Made by a program: the position numbers and the translations under genes. This document shows, one piece after another, positions 19,388 through 26,967 of a stretch of 64,000 nt of DNA. The notes under the pieces were generated by a model, which did no database searches, was not told where the DNA came from, and saw only the letters and a program-made list of their open reading frames with translations. Source of the stretch: Pseudorhodoferax soli (lineage in GTDB: Bacteria > Pseudomonadota > Gammaproteobacteria > Burkholderiales > Burkholderiaceae_C); the NCBI RefSeq assembly GCF_003337555.1, contig NZ_QPJK01000006.1, positions 248,001 through 312,000 of the forward strand. The letters run 5' to 3'. How positions within the stretch are numbered: the first letter of the stretch is position 1; every line of letters starts with the position of its first letter.

Positions 19388-19816
19388 ATGAGCATTCTCA
19401 GCAACATCTTCGGAAAACTCTTTCCCTCATCGCACGCCGCAAACGCCCCAGCGCCGTCGGCCCCTTCTGCCCCCGCCGCGCCGGCCTCCCTCGGTACTGC
19501 TCCTGGAGCGACGACTGCGGCACCCGCGCAGGCACCTTCGACTGCGCAACCCCTGTCTGAAGTCGATGTCGGACAGATGCTGGACGGCATGGCCGCGGCG
19601 TCCAGCGAAAAGCTGAACTGGAAGACGTCCATTGTCGATCTGCTCAAGCTGCTGCAACTGGACAGCTCGCTGGCGGCGCGCAAGGATTTGGCGAAGGAGC
19701 TGCACTACACGGGTGATACCAACGATTCCGCAGCCATGAACATCTGGCTGCATCGGCAGGTCATGAACAAGGTGGCAGCCAATGGCGGCAAAGTGCCAGC
19801 CGACCTCAAGGACTGA
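19388..19816 (+). CDS. DUF3597 domain protein
   Basis: A 142-residue protein. After a short N-terminal segment (MSILSNIFGKLF) comes an Ala/Pro-rich linker (about residues 15-55), then the DUF3597 domain, with the strongly conserved WKTSIVDLLKLLQLDSSLAA, RKDLAKELHYTGDT and the end NGGKVPADL. The family has no known biochemical function. It resembles LysM-less relatives often induced by osmotic or general stress. The gene is divergent from its left neighbour and converges with a DUF3606 gene. Confidence 0.88.
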   Translation: MSILSNIFGKLFPSSHAANAPAPSAPSAPAAPASLGTAPGATTAAPAQAPSTAQPLSEVDVGQMLDGMAAASSEKLNWKTSIVDLLKLLQLDSSLAARKDLAKELHYTGDTNDSAAMNIWLHRQVMNKVAANGGKVPADLKD

Positions 19817-19835: not shown

Positions 19836-20021
19836 TCATCTACTTGACTGCATCAGGTGCTGTTCCACCGCGTCGGCGCTGGTCCCGACCGCTTTGACGG
19901 CTTCCTTCAGCTTCTCGGGTGTTACGTTGAACTTCGTCGCCCAGCCGCGCAGTTCGTAGTCTTCGTTGACGTTGATGCGCTGCCGATCTGTTCCACCGGC
20001 CTTGGTCTTGTCGTCTGCCAT
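19836..20021 (-). CDS. DUF3606 domain protein
   Basis: A 61-residue protein of the DUF3606 family, seen from RQRINVNEDYELRGWATKF followed by a short helix pair ending in DAVEQHL. I choose the ATG at 20021; the much longer open frame upstream is antisense to ligD. Members are small, conserved, frequently found beside catalase, Ku/LigD and other stress genes; their function is unknown. It converges with the DUF3597 gene, 19 bases away. Confidence 0.85.
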   Translation of the reverse strand: MADDKTKAGGTDRQRINVNEDYELRGWATKFNVTPEKLKEAVKAVGTSADAVEQHLMQSSR

Positions 20022-20366: not shown

Positions 20367-23300
20367 ATGCGTGTTGCCACTTGGAACATCAACAACGTTA
20401 TCAAGCGGCTGGACCTCCTGCTTGGCTGGCTTGAGCGTGCCCAGCCAGATGTCGTCGCGCTCCAGGAACTGAAGACGCCCACGGCCGCCTTCCCGACCAG
20501 GGCGCTGGCGGATGCGGGCTATCAGAGTCTCGTGGTAGGCCAGCGCACGTGGAACGGCGTGGCACTCCTGGCTCGAGGCCAAGAGCCGTTGCCGGTCGTG
20601 ACCTCTCTGCCGGGGGACGCGAAAGACAAGGAAGCGCGTTACGTGGAGGCCGCCATCAACGGTGTGCTGTTCGCCTGCCTGTACCTGCCCAACGGCAATC
20701 CGCAACCGGGCCCCAAGTTCGACTACAAGCTGCGCTGGTTCGAGCGAATGCGCCAGCGGGCAGATGTGCTGTGGAGTTCGGGCCAGCCCGTCGTGCTCAT
20801 GGGGGACTGGAACGTGGTGCCTACGGACGCCGACATCTACAAGCCCGACACCTGGCGCGACAACGCGCTGTTGCAGCCCGAACCGCGTGAAGCCTATGCC
20901 GCGATCCTTTCCCAGGGCTGGACCGACGCACTGCGGGCCGTCAATCCCAAAAAGAAGTTCTTCACGTTCTGGGACTACCGCCGCAAGCGCTGGGAGCGCG
21001 ATGCGGGCCTGCGCATCGACCACATTCTGGTCAGCGCATCGCTGCAGGTCGTCGATGCCGGTGTGGACCGCGAGGAGCGTGGGCAGGAGGGCGCCAGCGA
21101 CCATGCGCCGGTGTGGGCCGAAGTCCGTGCCGCCGCGGCCAAACGTGCGAGGCGCTTCACTGCCAAACCAGTGCGGCCCCAAGTCAACGAGCCGCCCAGC
21201 CGGGCCGCGGGCAAGCCAAAGGCGCCGGCAGCAGAAGCCTCGGCCAGCCAGCCGCTCGCACGCTACAACGCCAAGCGCGATTTCACGAAGACCGCCGAAC
21301 CGACTGGCGCGCTGCCGCCGAGCACCGCGAAACGCGACCAGGGCCTGGTGTTCGTCATCCAGAAGCACTGGGCTTCCCGGCTGCACTACGACGTGCGGCT
21401 CGAACTCGATGGCGTGATGGTCTCCTGGGCCGTCCCCAAAGGTCCCTCATTCGACCCTGCCCGCAAGCAGATGGCCATCCACGTCGAGGACCACCCCATC
21501 GACTACAACACCTTTGAGGGTGCCATACCCAAGGGTGAGTACGGCGGTGGCAAGGTCATCGTCTGGGACCAGGGCACCTGGGAGCCGGTGGGCGATCCGC
21601 GCGAGGCGCTGGCCAAGGGCAAGCTGATGCTGCACTTCCATGGACAGAAGCTGGCCGGCCTGTGGGAGTTCGTCCGCATCTCCAAGCCTGGCGCCAAGAA
21701 GCAGGACCAGTGGATATTCTTCAAGAAGCGCGGCGACGCCTGGGCCCGGCCCAGCACCGAGTACGACGTCATCGCAGCGCTGCCGGACAGTGTGGTGGCG
21801 CAGCCGCTGGGGCTGGCCGAAGAGCGCGAGCCACACCGGGTTCGCGCAGCACCGCCTGTCGCCACTGCAGCTGACTTGCAGCAGGCGCGTAAAGCCCCTC
21901 TGCCGGCAAAGTTGGTGCCGCAGCTGGCGACCCTGGTCTCCTCGGTACCCTCTGGCAAGTGGGTGGTCGAGTCCAAGTTCGATGGATACCGCCTGCTGGC
22001 GAGGATCAACGGCAGTGAGGTTCGGCTCTTCACACGCAACGGCCACGACTGGACCGACAAGCTCGCCCCCATCGCACAAGCCATCGCGGAGTTCGGGCTT
22101 GAGAGCGCGTGGCTGGACGGTGAAATCGTGGTCCTGAACGATGCCGGCCTGCCGGACTTCAACCGCCTGCAGAACGCCATTGACAACGCGCGCACCCGGG
22201 ACATCGAGATGTTCGTCTTCGATGCCCCCTACCTGGGCGGCATGGACCTGCGCGAGGTGCCGTTGGCCAGCCGCCGCGCGGCGCTCAAGCAGTTGTTCGA
22301 AGAACGCGGGGAAGGCATCGTCCGATTCAGCCAGTCGTTCGACGTGATGCCCGGCCAGCTGCTGGACGCCGCCTGCCAGATGGGTATGGAAGGTGTCATG
22401 GTCAAACGCGCGGACGCGCCCTACACCGCGGGCCGGTCCGAGGCCTGGCTCAAGCTCAAGTGCCAGCACCGCCAGGAGTTCGTGGTGGTCGGCTTCACCG
22501 AGCGTGCTGGCGCCAGCAAGGAGGTGGGCAGCCTGCTGCTCGGCTACCACGAGGGACCGGAGCTGCGCTTTGCGGGCTCGGTCGGAACAGGATGGGGGTC
22601 GGCAACTGCCCGAGAGCTGAAGGCAATGCTGACCAAGCTGCTGGTCAAGCAGCCGGCCGTTGCTCCGGAGGATGCGAAGCCGGGGCGGTGGTCGAAGCGC
22701 GCTGCTGGCTCGGAGCGCTGGGTGCAACCGACGGTGGTCGTGGAGGTGGCGTTTTCCGAGTGGACACCCGACCGGCGGGTGCGCCATGCCGTGTTCCGCG
22801 GCGTGCGCACGGACAAGCCGGCGGCCCTCATCGTGCGCGAGCGCGCAAAGGCCATGGGCAGTGGCGTTCCGGCGAAGACGGCGCCGAAGACCCCCGGCTT
22901 GAAGGTAACCAACCCCGAACGTGTCATCGACGCATCCACCGGGCTGCGCAAGGTCGACCTGGTGCGCTACTACGAAAGCGTGGCCGAATGGATGCTGCCG
23001 CATCCGAAGGGACGGCCAACGTCACTGGTACGCGGCCCGACCGGCGTCACTGGCGAACTGTTCTTTCAGAAGCACGACGACAAGTTGTCCATCCCACACG
23101 TTCGCAACCTTCCCGCAGACCTTTGGCCAGGGCACGCGGAACTGCTGGAAGTGCCGAATGCGCAGGCGCTCGTCGCCTGCGCCCAGATGAACGTCATCGA
23201 ATTCCACACATGGAACTCGCTTGCGAAGAACATCGACAGGCCGGACCGCATCGTGTTCGATTTGGACCCTGGCGAAGGGGCGCCTTGGCAGCACGTCCAG

Positions 23301-23777
23301 GAAGCCGCGGTGCTCGTCCGGTCGATGCTGGAACAGCTCGGGCTCGAATGCTGGCTGAAGACTTCCGGAGGCAAAGGGCTGCATGTCGTCGTTCCCCTGG
23401 CCCCGCGGCTGGACTACGACACGGTCAAGGACTTCTCGCAATCGGTGGTGCAGCACCTGGCGCGCACCATCCCTTCGCGCTTCGTGGCCAAGAGCGGCCC
23501 GAAGAACCGGGTCGGCAAGCTCTTCGTGGATTACCTGCGCAATGGCCACGGGGCCACCACCGCGACGGCGTTCTCGGCGCGCTCACGACCGGGCTTGGGT
23601 GTTTCCATGCCCATTGCATGGGAGCAGCTGGGGGAGCTGAAAAGCGGTGCGCAATGGACCATCGCGACGGCGCGCGAGTACCTCAGTTTCCAGCAGGCCG
23701 ATCCGTGGTCAGGCTATTGGAAGAAGCGCCAATCCCTGACGGCCGCCATGCGTCTCTTGGCTGGGGCTACGAGCTGA
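20367..23777 (+). CDS. ligD: DNA ligase D with an N-terminal exonuclease III-like domain (four-domain fusion)
   Basis: A 1136-residue repair enzyme. Residues 1-255 are an ExoIII/AP-endonuclease fold with the full metal/catalytic set: WNIN (N7), LQELK (E34), Y106 in YLPNG, GDWN (D147, N149), RIDH (D218) and SDHAPV (D245, H246). A Pro/Ala/Lys linker (256-300) leads to the 3'-phosphoesterase domain (about 320-460; H340, D342, H372). The ATP-dependent ligase domain follows (about 515-815; ESKFDGYR with Lys537, EGVMVK, WLKLK). Last is the primase-polymerase domain (about 845-1125; DLDPG with D965/D967, SGGKGLHV). The order PE-LIG-POL is that of Pseudomonas LigD; the added nuclease is the unusual part. 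No Ku gene is in the window. It probably processes and seals double-strand breaks or oxidised ends. Confidence 0.95.
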   Translation: MRVATWNINNVIKRLDLLLGWLERAQPDVVALQELKTPTAAFPTRALADAGYQSLVVGQRTWNGVALLARGQEPLPVVTSLPGDAKDKEARYVEAAINGVLFACLYLPNGNPQPGPKFDYKLRWFERMRQRADVLWSSGQPVVLMGDWNVVPTDADIYKPDTWRDNALLQPEPREAYAAILSQGWTDALRAVNPKKKFFTFWDYRRKRWERDAGLRIDHILVSASLQVVDAGVDREERGQEGASDHAPVWAEVRAAAAKRARRFTAKPVRPQVNEPPSRAAGKPKAPAAEASASQPLARYNAKRDFTKTAEPTGALPPSTAKRDQGLVFVIQKHWASRLHYDVRLELDGVMVSWAVPKGPSFDPARKQMAIHVEDHPIDYNTFEGAIPKGEYGGGKVIVWDQGTWEPVGDPREALAKGKLMLHFHGQKLAGLWEFVRISKPGAKKQDQWIFFKKRGDAWARPSTEYDVIAALPDSVVAQPLGLAEEREPHRVRAAPPVATAADLQQARKAPLPAKLVPQLATLVSSVPSGKWVVESKFDGYRLLARINGSEVRLFTRNGHDWTDKLAPIAQAIAEFGLESAWLDGEIVVLNDAGLPDFNRLQNAIDNARTRDIEMFVFDAPYLGGMDLREVPLASRRAALKQLFEERGEGIVRFSQSFDVMPGQLLDAACQMGMEGVMVKRADAPYTAGRSEAWLKLKCQHRQEFVVVGFTERAGASKEVGSLLLGYHEGPELRFAGSVGTGWGSATARELKAMLTKLLVKQPAVAPEDAKPGRWSKRAAGSERWVQPTVVVEVAFSEWTPDRRVRHAVFRGVRTDKPAALIVRERAKAMGSGVPAKTAPKTPGLKVTNPERVIDASTGLRKVDLVRYYESVAEWMLPHPKGRPTSLVRGPTGVTGELFFQKHDDKLSIPHVRNLPADLWPGHAELLEVPNAQALVACAQMNVIEFHTWNSLAKNIDRPDRIVFDLDPGEGAPWQHVQEAAVLVRSMLEQLGLECWLKTSGGKGLHVVVPLAPRLDYDTVKDFSQSVVQHLARTIPSRFVAKSGPKNRVGKLFVDYLRNGHGATTATAFSARSRPGLGVSMPIAWEQLGELKSGAQWTIATAREYLSFQQADPWSGYWKKRQSLTAAMRLLAGATS

Positions 23778-24799: not shown

Positions 24800-24849
24800 G
24801 GTCTCCTTCCGGGCAAGTTTTGATAGCTGGATTGATATACAGTACGCGG

Positions 24850-26967
24850 ATGCTGTCCGCGCCCGTCCGTACCGATCCTGCGTCCGAGCCCATTCCCACT
24901 ACCGCCAGGCGCCTCGACCCGTTCGCCGACCTGAATCCGGCCCAGCGCGAGGCCGTGCAGCACGGCACCGAGGCCGAGCCGGACCTGCGACCGCTCCTGG
25001 TGATTGCCGGCGCCGGCTCCGGCAAGACCAACACGCTGGCGCACCGGGTCGCCAAACTGATCCTGCACGGCGCCGATCCCCAGCGCATGCTCCTGCTCAC
25101 CTTCTCGCGCCGCGCTGCACAGGAGATGGAGCAGCGCGTAGCCGGCGTCCTGCGCCGCGTGCTGGGTGGCACCACGACCCCTACCGCCTTGCCCTGGTCG
25201 GGCACCTTCCACAGCATTGGCGCGCGTCTGTTGCGCGAGTACGCGGGGCGCATCGGCCTGGAGACCAACTTCACCATCTCTGACCGCGGCGATGCCGAGG
25301 ACCTGCTGGGACTTGTGCGCAATGACCTGGGCCTGACCCAAACCAAGAACCGCTTCCCCCAGAAGGGAACCTGCTTGGCGATCTACTCGCGTGTGGTCAA
25401 CACCCAGGCGCCGTTGGCCGAGGTGCTGCAGCAGAATTTCCCATGGTGCAGCGCCTGGGAGGACGAGCTGCGCAGGCTCTTCGGTGCATACGTGCAAGCC
25501 AAGCAGGAGCAGAACGTGCTCGACTACGACGACCTGCTGCTGTTCTGGTCCGAGATGATGGGCGAGCCCAGCTTGGCCACAGAGGTCGGCGCCGCTTTCG
25601 ATCACGTCCTGGTCGACGAATACCAGGACACGAACCGGCTGCAGGCCGCGATCCTGCTGGGCCTCAAGCCTGAAGGCACGGGTGTCACCGTGGTGGGCGA
25701 CGACGCGCAGTCGATCTATGCCTTCCGTGGCGCGACAGTGCGCAACATCCTGGACTTCCCGCACCAGTTCCGCCAGCCAGCGCGCAGTGTGGCCCTGGAG
25801 CAGAACTACCGCTCCATCCAGCCCATCCTCGCGGTCTCCAACGCCGTCATCGCGGCGGCCAGCGAGCGCCACGCAAAGACCCTGTGGACGGACCGGGCCG
25901 GCGCGCAGCTGCCGCAGCTCGTCAGCGTGCCGGATGAGGCCAGCGAGGCACGCTGGGTGGCTGACCGCATCCTGCAGCACCGCGAGGCAGGCCTCACGCT
26001 CAAGTCGCAGGCAGTGCTGTTCCGCACGTCCTCGCATAGTGCCGTGCTGGAGCTGGAACTGACCCGGCGCAACATCCCCTTCGTAAAGTTCGGCGGACTG
26101 AAGTTCCTCGAGGCTTCTCACGTGAAGGACTTGCTGGCGATTCTGCGCTTCGCGCAGAACCCGCGCGGACGGCTTGCCGGGCTGCGCACGCTGCAGCTGA
26201 TGCCGGGCATTGGACCGGTCACGGCCACGCGCGTGCTCGAAGCCATCGAGCAGGCAGCCGATCCCCGTGACGCTGTGCAGGCCTTCGAGCCGCCGGCGGC
26301 CGCGGCGGGCGAATGGGCCGCCTTCGTGGAACTGTTCCAGGCGATGCACAAGAGCAGCGGCAGCTCGACCTGGCCTGCCGAGGTGGGCCTTGCCAAGCGT
26401 TGGTACCTCCCGCAGCTCGAACGCCTGCACGACGATTCTGAGGCGCGCCGCGCCGACGTCGAAAACCTGGAGCGCATGGCTTCGGGTTACGCCGACCGCG
26501 AACGCTTTCTGACCGAGCTGACGCTTGATCCGCCGGACGCCACCAGCGATCAGTCCGGGCCGCCGGGACGTGACGAGGACTACCTGATCCTCTCGACCAT
26601 CCATTCGGCCAAGGGTCAAGAATGGAAGGCAGTGTTCCTGCTGCGCGCTGTCGACGGTTGCATCCCATCGGACCTGGGCACTGGCAGCACTTCAGAGATC
26701 GACGAGGAGCGCCGGCTGCTCTACGTGGCGTTGACGCGCGCCAAGGATCATTTGCATGTGATGACACCGCACCGCTTCTACATCACCCAGCAGGGCTCGA
26801 TGGGCGACCGCCATGTTTACGCAGCGCGTACGCGTTTCATCTCTGACGCTTTGCTGCCGCAGTTCGAGAGCATCACGTGGCCGCTGGCTTCAGTGGACCC
26901 TGCCAGGAGAGCGCCGCAGACCGTGGTGATGCAGATACGCGACCGAGCGAAGTCGGCATGGCGGTGA
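24850..26967 (+). CDS. ATP-dependent DNA helicase, UvrD/Rep family (SF1A)
   Basis: A 705-residue helicase with all superfamily 1A motifs: LNPAQREAV, Walker A AGAGSGKT (residues 53-60), LTFSRRAAQEM, Walker B VDEYQDTN, GDDAQSIYAFRGA, LEQNYRS, STIHSAKGQEW and YVALTRAKDHLHV. It is similar in size to UvrD/Rep/PcrA but lacks a long C-terminal tail. Translation could begin at TTG 24820, but the ATG at 24850 is more likely. It sits two genes from the LigD fusion on the same strand; helicases of this type often accompany ligD in bacterial NHEJ-type loci, so a repair role is likely. Confidence 0.92.
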   Translation: MLSAPVRTDPASEPIPTTARRLDPFADLNPAQREAVQHGTEAEPDLRPLLVIAGAGSGKTNTLAHRVAKLILHGADPQRMLLLTFSRRAAQEMEQRVAGVLRRVLGGTTTPTALPWSGTFHSIGARLLREYAGRIGLETNFTISDRGDAEDLLGLVRNDLGLTQTKNRFPQKGTCLAIYSRVVNTQAPLAEVLQQNFPWCSAWEDELRRLFGAYVQAKQEQNVLDYDDLLLFWSEMMGEPSLATEVGAAFDHVLVDEYQDTNRLQAAILLGLKPEGTGVTVVGDDAQSIYAFRGATVRNILDFPHQFRQPARSVALEQNYRSIQPILAVSNAVIAAASERHAKTLWTDRAGAQLPQLVSVPDEASEARWVADRILQHREAGLTLKSQAVLFRTSSHSAVLELELTRRNIPFVKFGGLKFLEASHVKDLLAILRFAQNPRGRLAGLRTLQLMPGIGPVTATRVLEAIEQAADPRDAVQAFEPPAAAAGEWAAFVELFQAMHKSSGSSTWPAEVGLAKRWYLPQLERLHDDSEARRADVENLERMASGYADRERFLTELTLDPPDATSDQSGPPGRDEDYLILSTIHSAKGQEWKAVFLLRAVDGCIPSDLGTGSTSEIDEERRLLYVALTRAKDHLHVMTPHRFYITQQGSMGDRHVYAARTRFISDALLPQFESITWPLASVDPARRAPQTVVMQIRDRAKSAWR

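What the first reader, a model, noticed from the sequence alone, without database searches (positions are those of the whole stretch)
20367..23777. Exonuclease III-like domain fused to the N-terminus of DNA ligase D
One uninterrupted 1136-codon frame joins a complete ExoIII/AP-endonuclease domain (all usual catalytic residues present) to phosphoesterase, ligase and polymerase domains. Known LigD layouts are PE-LIG-POL (Pseudomonas) or POL-PE-LIG (mycobacteria). A built-in AP endonuclease would let one protein cut abasic sites, trim 3' ends, fill and seal. This could link base-excision repair to end joining. I do not know of a characterised protein with this exact layout, though I cannot search for one.
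Basis: partly seen in the sequence, partly recalled or inferred. Interest (0 to 1): 0.78.

Follow-up and report, generated by a model that had tools for sequence, protein, structure and literature searches.

The report
DNA ligase D with extra nuclease
A bacterium makes one long DNA-repair protein that joins an end-cleaning nuclease to the usual three-part DNA-break-sealing enzyme; relatives carry the same fusion, and it seems to have arisen more than once, so it is a real but apparently undescribed variant of a known repair machine.

Summary
Window 20367-23777 (+) is one 1136-codon frame: ExoIII-family (EEP) domain, 3'-phosphoesterase (PE), ligase and polymerase, active-site motifs intact. It is no one-off: all 6 held species of the genus (probably Pseudorhodoferax) carry 1-3 such fusions besides one conventional LigD each. 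So do 12 of 399 sampled genomes of the family (two imperfect), two Pseudomonas and a third genome grouping with them. Trees force several gains or losses; adjacent or overlapping xth-ligD pairs look like precursors. Two fused proteins lack PE. The EEP part is under purifying selection like the rest; the linker drifts. The 'AP endonuclease' reading is not secured: the domain is nearest to Neisseria NExo, a 3'-phosphatase/exonuclease without AP-endonuclease activity, and has Leu168 where AP endonucleases tested beside NExo have Gly or Ser. Most likely it is a built-in 3'-end healer that frees blocked ends for filling and sealing; no activity was measured. My searches found no paper describing it. 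A small DUF3606 gene accompanies 9 of 10 fusions in the genus and 0 of 6 conventional LigDs. Verdict: a new variant of a known kind, of moderate interest.

The parts
20367..23777 (+). EEP-LigD fusion gene, 1136 aa, one frame, ATG start
20367..21128 (+). ExoIII-family (EEP) nuclease domain, residues 1-254, catalytic residues present; N109 and L168 are the specificity positions
   Evidence: model of residues 1-258 pLDDT 91.2, best fold match NExo Z 34.9
21129..21254 (+). low-constraint linker, residues 255-296; one start-like codon (GTG 269) and no ATG
   Evidence: linker dN/dS 0.32-0.99 against 0.08-0.17 for EEP in the same five pairs
21255..21731 (+). LigD 3'-phosphoesterase (PE) domain, residues 297-455, six catalytic positions (recalled from the family) intact
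21918..22829 (+). ATP-dependent ligase (LIG) domain, residues 518-821, K537-x-D-G motif
22902..23765 (+). primase-polymerase (POL) domain, residues 846-1133 (TIGR02778 846-1089; alignment to 2fao runs to 1133), D965/D967/D1055
19836..20021 (-). DUF3606 gene (about 61 aa) diverging from the fusion gene; frequent neighbour of EEP-LigD fusions, function unknown

Best explanation
The gene encodes a four-part LigD in which a third-class ExoIII-family nuclease serves as an extra, built-in 3'-end-healing module. Proposed course: at a broken or gapped DNA end with a blocked 3' terminus (3'-phosphate, phosphoglycolate, the sugar remnant left by AP lyases, or a mismatched base), the EEP domain hydrolyses the block with metal-ion chemistry (D147/H246) and leaves a 3'-OH. 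PE handles ribonucleotide or residual 3'-phosphate ends, POL fills the gap, and LIG seals the nick. This would serve Ku-directed end joining, and possibly Ku-free gap repair for copies like the window's that have no Ku nearby. Shown here: the architecture, intact active sites, purifying selection, recurrence, links to Ku/LigD loci, and the sequence and fold class of the EEP domain. Inferred: enzymatic activity, substrate range and pathway. AP-site incision is possible but is not the favoured main activity.
For: Four sets of active-site residues in one frame. EEP dN/dS 0.08-0.17 in the five pairs compared, in the range of PE/LIG/POL (0.05-0.33), with the linker at 0.32-0.99. 22 of 23 fused proteins keep all nine EEP positions checked; the exception is Mycetohabitans rhizoxinica B12. 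The class is nearest to NExo by phmmer (178 bits, against 129 for E. coli ExoIII and 76 for NApe) and by fold (Z 34.9, 1.9 A over 254; NApe chains 30.0-30.4). N109 and L168 are present in all 23 fused EEPs. Two EEP-fused LigDs lack PE altogether (L209 in the own family; L059 Pseudomonas UBA1879), and two PE-less LIG-POL LigDs have an EEP gene 490 bp (L034 = L249) or 617 bp (L055) away. Eight loci of one family (f91, probably Rhizobiaceae) hold ligD, ku and EEP within about 5 kb. Published precedent: ExoIII/XthA/EndoIV clean 3' ends ahead of mycobacterial Prim-PolC and LigC1 in reconstituted repair and bind LigC1 (PMC5663958, passages); LigD has 5'-dRP lyase and can finish BER after an AP endonuclease (PMC4770248, passages).
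Against: No activity was measured. PE, which already removes 3'-phosphates in classical LigD (recalled), is retained with intact residues in 21 of 23 fused proteins, so EEP is not simply a replacement. In the survey the link between PE absence and EEP linkage is not significant (2 of 13 linked against 3 of 101 unlinked, Fisher p = 0.099). The window copy has no Ku within the 64 kb window, so its place in end joining is inferred from relatives. The cell also has two stand-alone xth genes that could do the same chemistry. The A. fulgidus AP endonuclease ties with NExo in fold. The architecture is rare: in an order-level sample of 300 genomes only the own genome showed it (two candidates scored per genome). 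The full-length structure model failed (pLDDT 53.5), so nothing is known of how the domains cooperate.
Confidence: 0.66

Rival explanations
1. The EEP domain is chiefly an AP endonuclease, making the fusion a single-chain short-patch base-excision repair enzyme.
For: It scores above the curated cut-off of the exodeoxyribonuclease III models. E. coli ExoIII, an NExo orthologue, has all activities (PMC6294502, passages). The A. fulgidus AP endonuclease fold is as close within the error (Z 34.1) and has Cys, not Gly/Ser, at the gate position. LigD's 5'-dRP lyase and gap filling would complete BER (PMC4770248, passages).
Against: Leu168 at the position where NExo His167 blocks AP sites, against Ser in E. 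coli XthA and Gly in the own NApe-like xth; Asn109 as in NExo, not Ser as in the NApe type. F201 stands in the place of E. coli W212, though human APE1 has Phe there too (recalled), so this counts little. The own genome already has a NApe-like xth (C4).
Confidence: 0.17
2. The EEP domain works mainly as a 3'-5' exonuclease that resects ends to create gaps or microhomology for POL-mediated joining, and not as an end healer.
For: NExo and ExoIII are 3'-5' exonucleases on double-stranded DNA (passages); POL acts on 3' overhangs and gaps (recalled).
Against: Strong exonuclease was the less useful partner in LigC-dependent repair, EndoIV being better (PMC5663958, passages). No direct evidence here.
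Confidence: 0.12
3. The fusion is an incidental read-through of neighbouring xth-ligD genes, kept neutrally, with EEP adding nothing to LigD.
For: Adjacent or overlapping pairs exist (G375 C4; M. endofungorum B5, 20 bp overlap), and M. rhizoxinica B12 carries a fusion with a decayed EEP (D147 to N, D218 to E, D245 not kept).
Against: 22 of 23 fused proteins keep the EEP positions checked. Strong purifying selection on EEP and not on the linker. Retained in 10 copies across 6 of 6 species of the genus.
Confidence: 0.05

Closest known systems
LigD of the PE-LIG-POL kind, as in Pseudomonas aeruginosa (solved parts 2fao POL, 2lj6/3n9b PE; the species is recalled)
   Same: Residues 293-1133 follow the same domain order with the catalytic motifs; PRK05972 model 1118.9 bits, cut-off 895.
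   Different: A complete ExoIII-family domain precedes PE. Two relatives have EEP-LIG-POL with no PE.
NExo of Neisseria meningitidis (PDB 2jc4, 6fk4, 6fk5; PMC6294502)
   Same: Best sequence and fold match; same catalytic residues; N108 equivalent kept.
   Different: Stand-alone protein. H167 is Leu168 here. The window class has 15 class positions (among them N111-P112-x-P114-G115, A167-L168, F201) not shared by NExo, E. coli XthA or the two other own xth genes.
E. coli exonuclease III (XthA)
   Same: Same family; the window domain is over the TIGR00195 cut-off.
   Different: Ser at the L168 position, Gln at N109, Trp at F201; stand-alone.
Mycobacterial LigC / Prim-PolC working with ExoIII, XthA and EndoIV in base-excision repair (PMC5663958)
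   Same: Same set of activities (3'-end cleaning, Prim-Pol filling, ATP-dependent ligation) brought together by protein contacts (passages).
   Different: Separate proteins of the LigC branch, not one chain.
xth-ligD (and ku) gene neighbours in Mycetohabitans, Sphingobium and family f91 (probably rhizobia)
   Same: Same gene partners side by side, overlapping, or within about 5 kb.
   Different: Not fused.

Membership tests
[quoted passage not shown]
Bacterial LigD (NHEJ ligase) | genomic link to Ku | tested here: inconclusive
   No Ku in the 64 kb window; Ku adjacent to the sister copy on C3 and to several fused relatives
Bacterial LigD (NHEJ ligase) | Ku-stimulated end joining activity | not testable with these tools
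   needs purified protein
Exonuclease III / EEP nuclease family | full-length domain over the curated cut-off with N7, E34, Y106, D147, N149, D218, D245, H246 | tested here: met
   fold confirmed, Z 31-35 to NExo, A. fulgidus AP endonuclease and ExoIII
NExo-type 3'-phosphatase | Asn at position 108 and His at 167 (NExo numbering) | tested here: not met
   Asn kept (N109) but His replaced by Leu168; it is a separate class resembling NExo
NApe/ExoIII-type AP endonuclease | Gly or Ser at the NExo-H167 position | tested here: not met
   L168; A. fulgidus enzyme has Cys there, so the feature does not define every AP endonuclease
NApe/ExoIII-type AP endonuclease | incision of native AP sites | not testable with these tools
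   needs assay

The most novel reading that the evidence does not exclude
EEP-LigD is a recurrent single-chain repair machine that carries a blocked 3' end through to a sealed strand: cleaning by a third ExoIII class, filling and ligation. The nuclease has let PE be discarded in at least two lineages. The module includes a tiny conserved partner (DUF3606), so NHEJ and single-strand-break/base-excision repair merge in one protein in Comamonadaceae and Pseudomonas.
Probability: 0.33. Interest if true: 0.72.

Novelty: new variant of a known kind. Interest (0 to 1): 0.52.

Why it matters
Bacterial LigD is the textbook single-protein end joiner, and whether it also works in base-excision or single-strand-break repair is an open question. 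A natural fusion to a 3'-end-processing nuclease, kept by selection in several species and apparently formed more than once, hints that 3' cleaning is a limiting step of LigD repair. It gives a one-polypeptide system in which healing, filling and sealing can be tested together. The PE-less versions offer a clean test of whether the extra nuclease can replace PE. The DUF3606 neighbour is a new candidate accessory gene.

Tried and rejected
1) 'EEP simply replaces PE': in the survey of 114 LIG+POL loci PE is missing in 2 of 13 EEP-linked and 3 of 101 unlinked loci (p = 0.099; one unlinked locus with PE in a neighbouring frame was counted as having PE), and PE stays intact in 21 of 23 fused proteins. 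Kept only as a lineage-level hint. The two further PE-less cases (L059, L055) came from an EEP-directed scan and are not in that count.

2) 'Unique to this genome' and 'assembly error': rejected by the second copy on another contig and the relatives.

3) 'Single origin': in the LIG+POL tree (71 rows, 20 fused; three imperfect fusions left out) the label needs 5 changes, all forced by well-supported branches; in the EEP tree (93 rows: 23 fused, 13 near, 57 alone; near-duplicate loci were dropped beforehand) fused against near needs 4. Gains and losses cannot be told apart fully. The EEP-tree bootstrap had not settled, and support inside the Comamonadaceae clade is weak.

4) Full-length structure prediction gave pLDDT 53.5 and pTM 0.33 and was not used; the EEP domain alone is good (91.2).

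5) DUF3597 as a linked gene: 2 of 20 fused loci, 1 of 109 survey loci, 0 of 66 EEP loci of the genome-contig scan, dropped. The DUF3606 count used an out-of-frame query and is void; one search replaces it.

7) Separate translation of LigD from an internal start: no ATG between codons 145 and 351. GTG 269 has no Shine-Dalgarno-like stretch; GTG 328 has a weak AGGG before it. Not excluded.

8) Plasmid records: 1589 match the protein, 14 of them over at least 80% of its length; I opened four of the listed records, and one, M. rhizoxinica B12, is a single fused gene.
Full report
Observation. The frame 20367..23777 (+) exists as described and encodes 1136 residues from an ATG. NCBIfam places an exodeoxyribonuclease III domain at 1-254, LigD PE at 297-455, LIG at 518-821 and POL from 846, each over its curated cut-off, and Pfam agrees. 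Catalytic sets of all four domains are present.

Where it lies. The window is part of an 8.16 Mb genome (C6:248001-312000). Four genomes of the same genus have contigs whose lengths equal those of named records: Pseudorhodoferax aquiterrae, Pseudorhodoferax sp. Leaf274, Pseudorhodoferax sp. Leaf267, and a strain filed as Variovorax boronicumulans. The organism is therefore most likely a Pseudorhodoferax (Comamonadaceae); this is an inference. The genome holds four ExoIII-family places: two stand-alone xth genes (C1, C4) and two EEP-LigD fusions (window and C3:93501-96884, 79% identical). It also holds a conventional LigD without EEP (C2) and three Ku genes, one beside the C3 fusion, one beside the C2 LigD and one with no LigD in its 3.5 kb locus; none is in the window.

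Spread. In the genus, 6 of 6 genomes have at least one full-length fusion (10 copies in all), and all 6 also have one conventional LigD. In 399 sampled genomes of the family (matches to E 1e-100, at most four candidates scored per genome), a fused frame appears in 12. Eleven have the match running through EEP and PE, two of these imperfect (G354 frame break, G438 internal deletion); the twelfth, G482, is EEP-LIG-POL. In an order-level sample of 300 genomes only the own genome showed it (two candidates scored per genome). In 398 sampled genomes of the phylum (E 1e-90, at most four candidates) the fused genomes seen were the own one, G482 and G914; of the other long frames I checked two, which were not fused (G972, G1042). 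They include Acidovorax, Ottowia, Pseudomonas sp. M47T1 (four domains) and Pseudomonas UBA1879 (EEP-LIG-POL, no PE). Altogether I compared 23 distinct fused frames: 17 with four domains and all checked residues, 2 without PE (L209, L059), 1 cut by a contig end (L043), 1 with an internal deletion (L151), 1 broken frame (L150) and 1 with a decayed EEP (L156).

Origins. A tree of LIG+POL (71 rows) needs at least 5 changes of the fused label, all forced by well-supported branches. The main Comamonadaceae group, G482, a clade of two Pseudomonas and G914, and Mycetohabitans B12 fall apart. In the EEP tree (93 rows) the fused EEPs of the own family form one 26-row clade (19 fused, 1 beside Ku, 6 alone of which two are one locus; 100/100) on a long stem. 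The two Pseudomonas ones nest with stand-alone Pseudomonas xth genes. Possible precursors are visible. M. endofungorum B5 has xth and ligD overlapping by 20 bp. G375 has both a fusion and a separate adjacent pair whose open frames overlap. Sphingobium has ligD and xth side by side, and eight loci of family f91 have xth, ligD and ku within about 5 kb. M. rhizoxinica B12 shows a fusion in which EEP has lost catalytic residues, so fusion by itself is no proof of function.

Constraint. Nei-Gojobori dN/dS for EEP is 0.083 against the nearest relative and 0.110-0.167 in the other four pairs, in the range of PE, LIG and POL (0.051-0.331). The linker is 0.32-0.99. EEP is therefore kept by selection as part of the fusion.

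What kind of nuclease. The domain's best solved relatives are NExo (178 bits), A. fulgidus AP endonuclease (139) and E. coli ExoIII (129); NApe scores 76. A confident model of residues 1-258 (pLDDT 91.2, pTM 0.91) matches NExo at Z 34.9 (1.9 A over 254), the A. fulgidus enzyme at 34.1 (a tie), ExoIII at 31.2 and NApe chains at 30.0-30.4. In the NExo study, passages of which I read, H167 blocks AP sites while Gly or Ser there confers AP activity, though slow in H167G, so other determinants exist; N108 favours 3'-phosphatase activity (PMC6294502). The window has L168 and N109 at these positions. Of 94 EEP rows aligned (near-duplicates and the window's own copy included), 93 have both residues; the exception is the own C4 gene, a NApe-like xth that the row filter let in. 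Fifteen positions set the class apart from E. coli XthA, NExo and the two other own xth genes. So the fused domain belongs to a third ExoIII class, found as a stand-alone gene in Proteobacteria, Bacteroidota and a few others. Its determinants favour 3'-end cleaning, and AP incision is uncertain.

How it most likely works. A blocked 3' end is opened by EEP, PE trims what EEP leaves, POL fills and LIG seals. Published precedents for separate proteins doing this are the LigC/Prim-PolC complex with ExoIII, XthA and EndoIV (PMC5663958, passages) and LigD completing BER after an AP endonuclease (PMC4770248, passages). Loss of PE from two EEP-fused LigDs suggests overlap with PE. In the survey of 114 LIG+POL loci the association is only suggestive (2 of 13 against 3 of 101, p = 0.099). 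That survey took the listed matches with both LIG and POL, the own three LigDs, G482 and G914 among them; matches to one domain only, and rows the output did not list, were left out.

A neighbour. A DUF3606 gene diverges from the fusion 345 bp upstream. In the genus, 9 of 10 fusions have a DUF3606 gene within 3.2 kb (20 to 370 bp in six; in G667 it is in two pieces) against 0 of 6 conventional LigDs (positions; Fisher p = 0.0009; the loci are related, so this is not a true probability). The tenth fusion starts 2 kb from a contig end. More widely it is 13 of 20 fused loci, 4 of 109 survey LigD loci and 0 of 66 EEP loci of the genome-contig scan, a few of which are themselves fused or near Ku or LigD (flanks differ between sets, and the survey set is mostly from more distant taxa).

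Literature. Ten searches of an open-access library listed no description of an ExoIII-LigD fusion; I saw passages of five papers and only the listing of the rest. The 2020 survey of bacterial NHEJ mentions 20 additional domains in Ku and LigD proteins in a supplementary table that I could not open (PMC7719229, passages). The one fused protein whose annotation I saw, that of M. rhizoxinica B12, is filed simply as 'DNA ligase D'.

Verdict. This is a new variant of a known kind: a recurrent four-part LigD with a built-in NExo-like 3'-end nuclease.

Noticed in passing
window 19836-20021 (-): DUF3606 small gene diverging from the fusion; found within 3.2 kb of 9 of 10 EEP-LigD fusions of the genus and none of 6 conventional LigDs; also annotated between a ligase and Ku in Sphingobium RAC03.
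   Followed up: partly
L209 3512-6349 (+); L059 5983-8874 (+): EEP-LIG-POL proteins without PE, in the own family and in Pseudomonas UBA1879.
   Followed up: partly
L156 3842-7528 (+) (Mycetohabitans rhizoxinica B12); L157 (M. endofungorum B5): Fused gene with decayed EEP (D147 to N, D218 to E, D245 not kept) next to a sister species with overlapping xth and ligD genes.
   Followed up: partly
L048 4783-6807 (+), Paracidovorax valerianellae: Ku frame followed 4 bp later by a stand-alone EEP of the fusion clade with no LigD in the 12.8 kb locus: a possible split of the fusion.
   Followed up: no
L330 5192-7012 (+) and L331 4990-6810 (-): 607-aa LigD-like LIG-POL proteins without PE and with a shortened POL match in two same-phylum genomes, no EEP within about 5 kb.
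   Followed up: no
L150 3819-6179 (-), G354: Frame break between LIG and POL in an otherwise good EEP-LigD; sequencing error or decay not resolved.
   Followed up: no
window 24820-26967 (+): UvrD/Rep-type helicase gene downstream of the fusion, after a MarR-type regulator and an opposite-strand cupin gene.
   Followed up: no
window 19388-19816 (+): DUF3597 gene upstream; also upstream of ligD in Mycetohabitans rhizoxinica B12, but rare at other LigD loci.
   Followed up: yes
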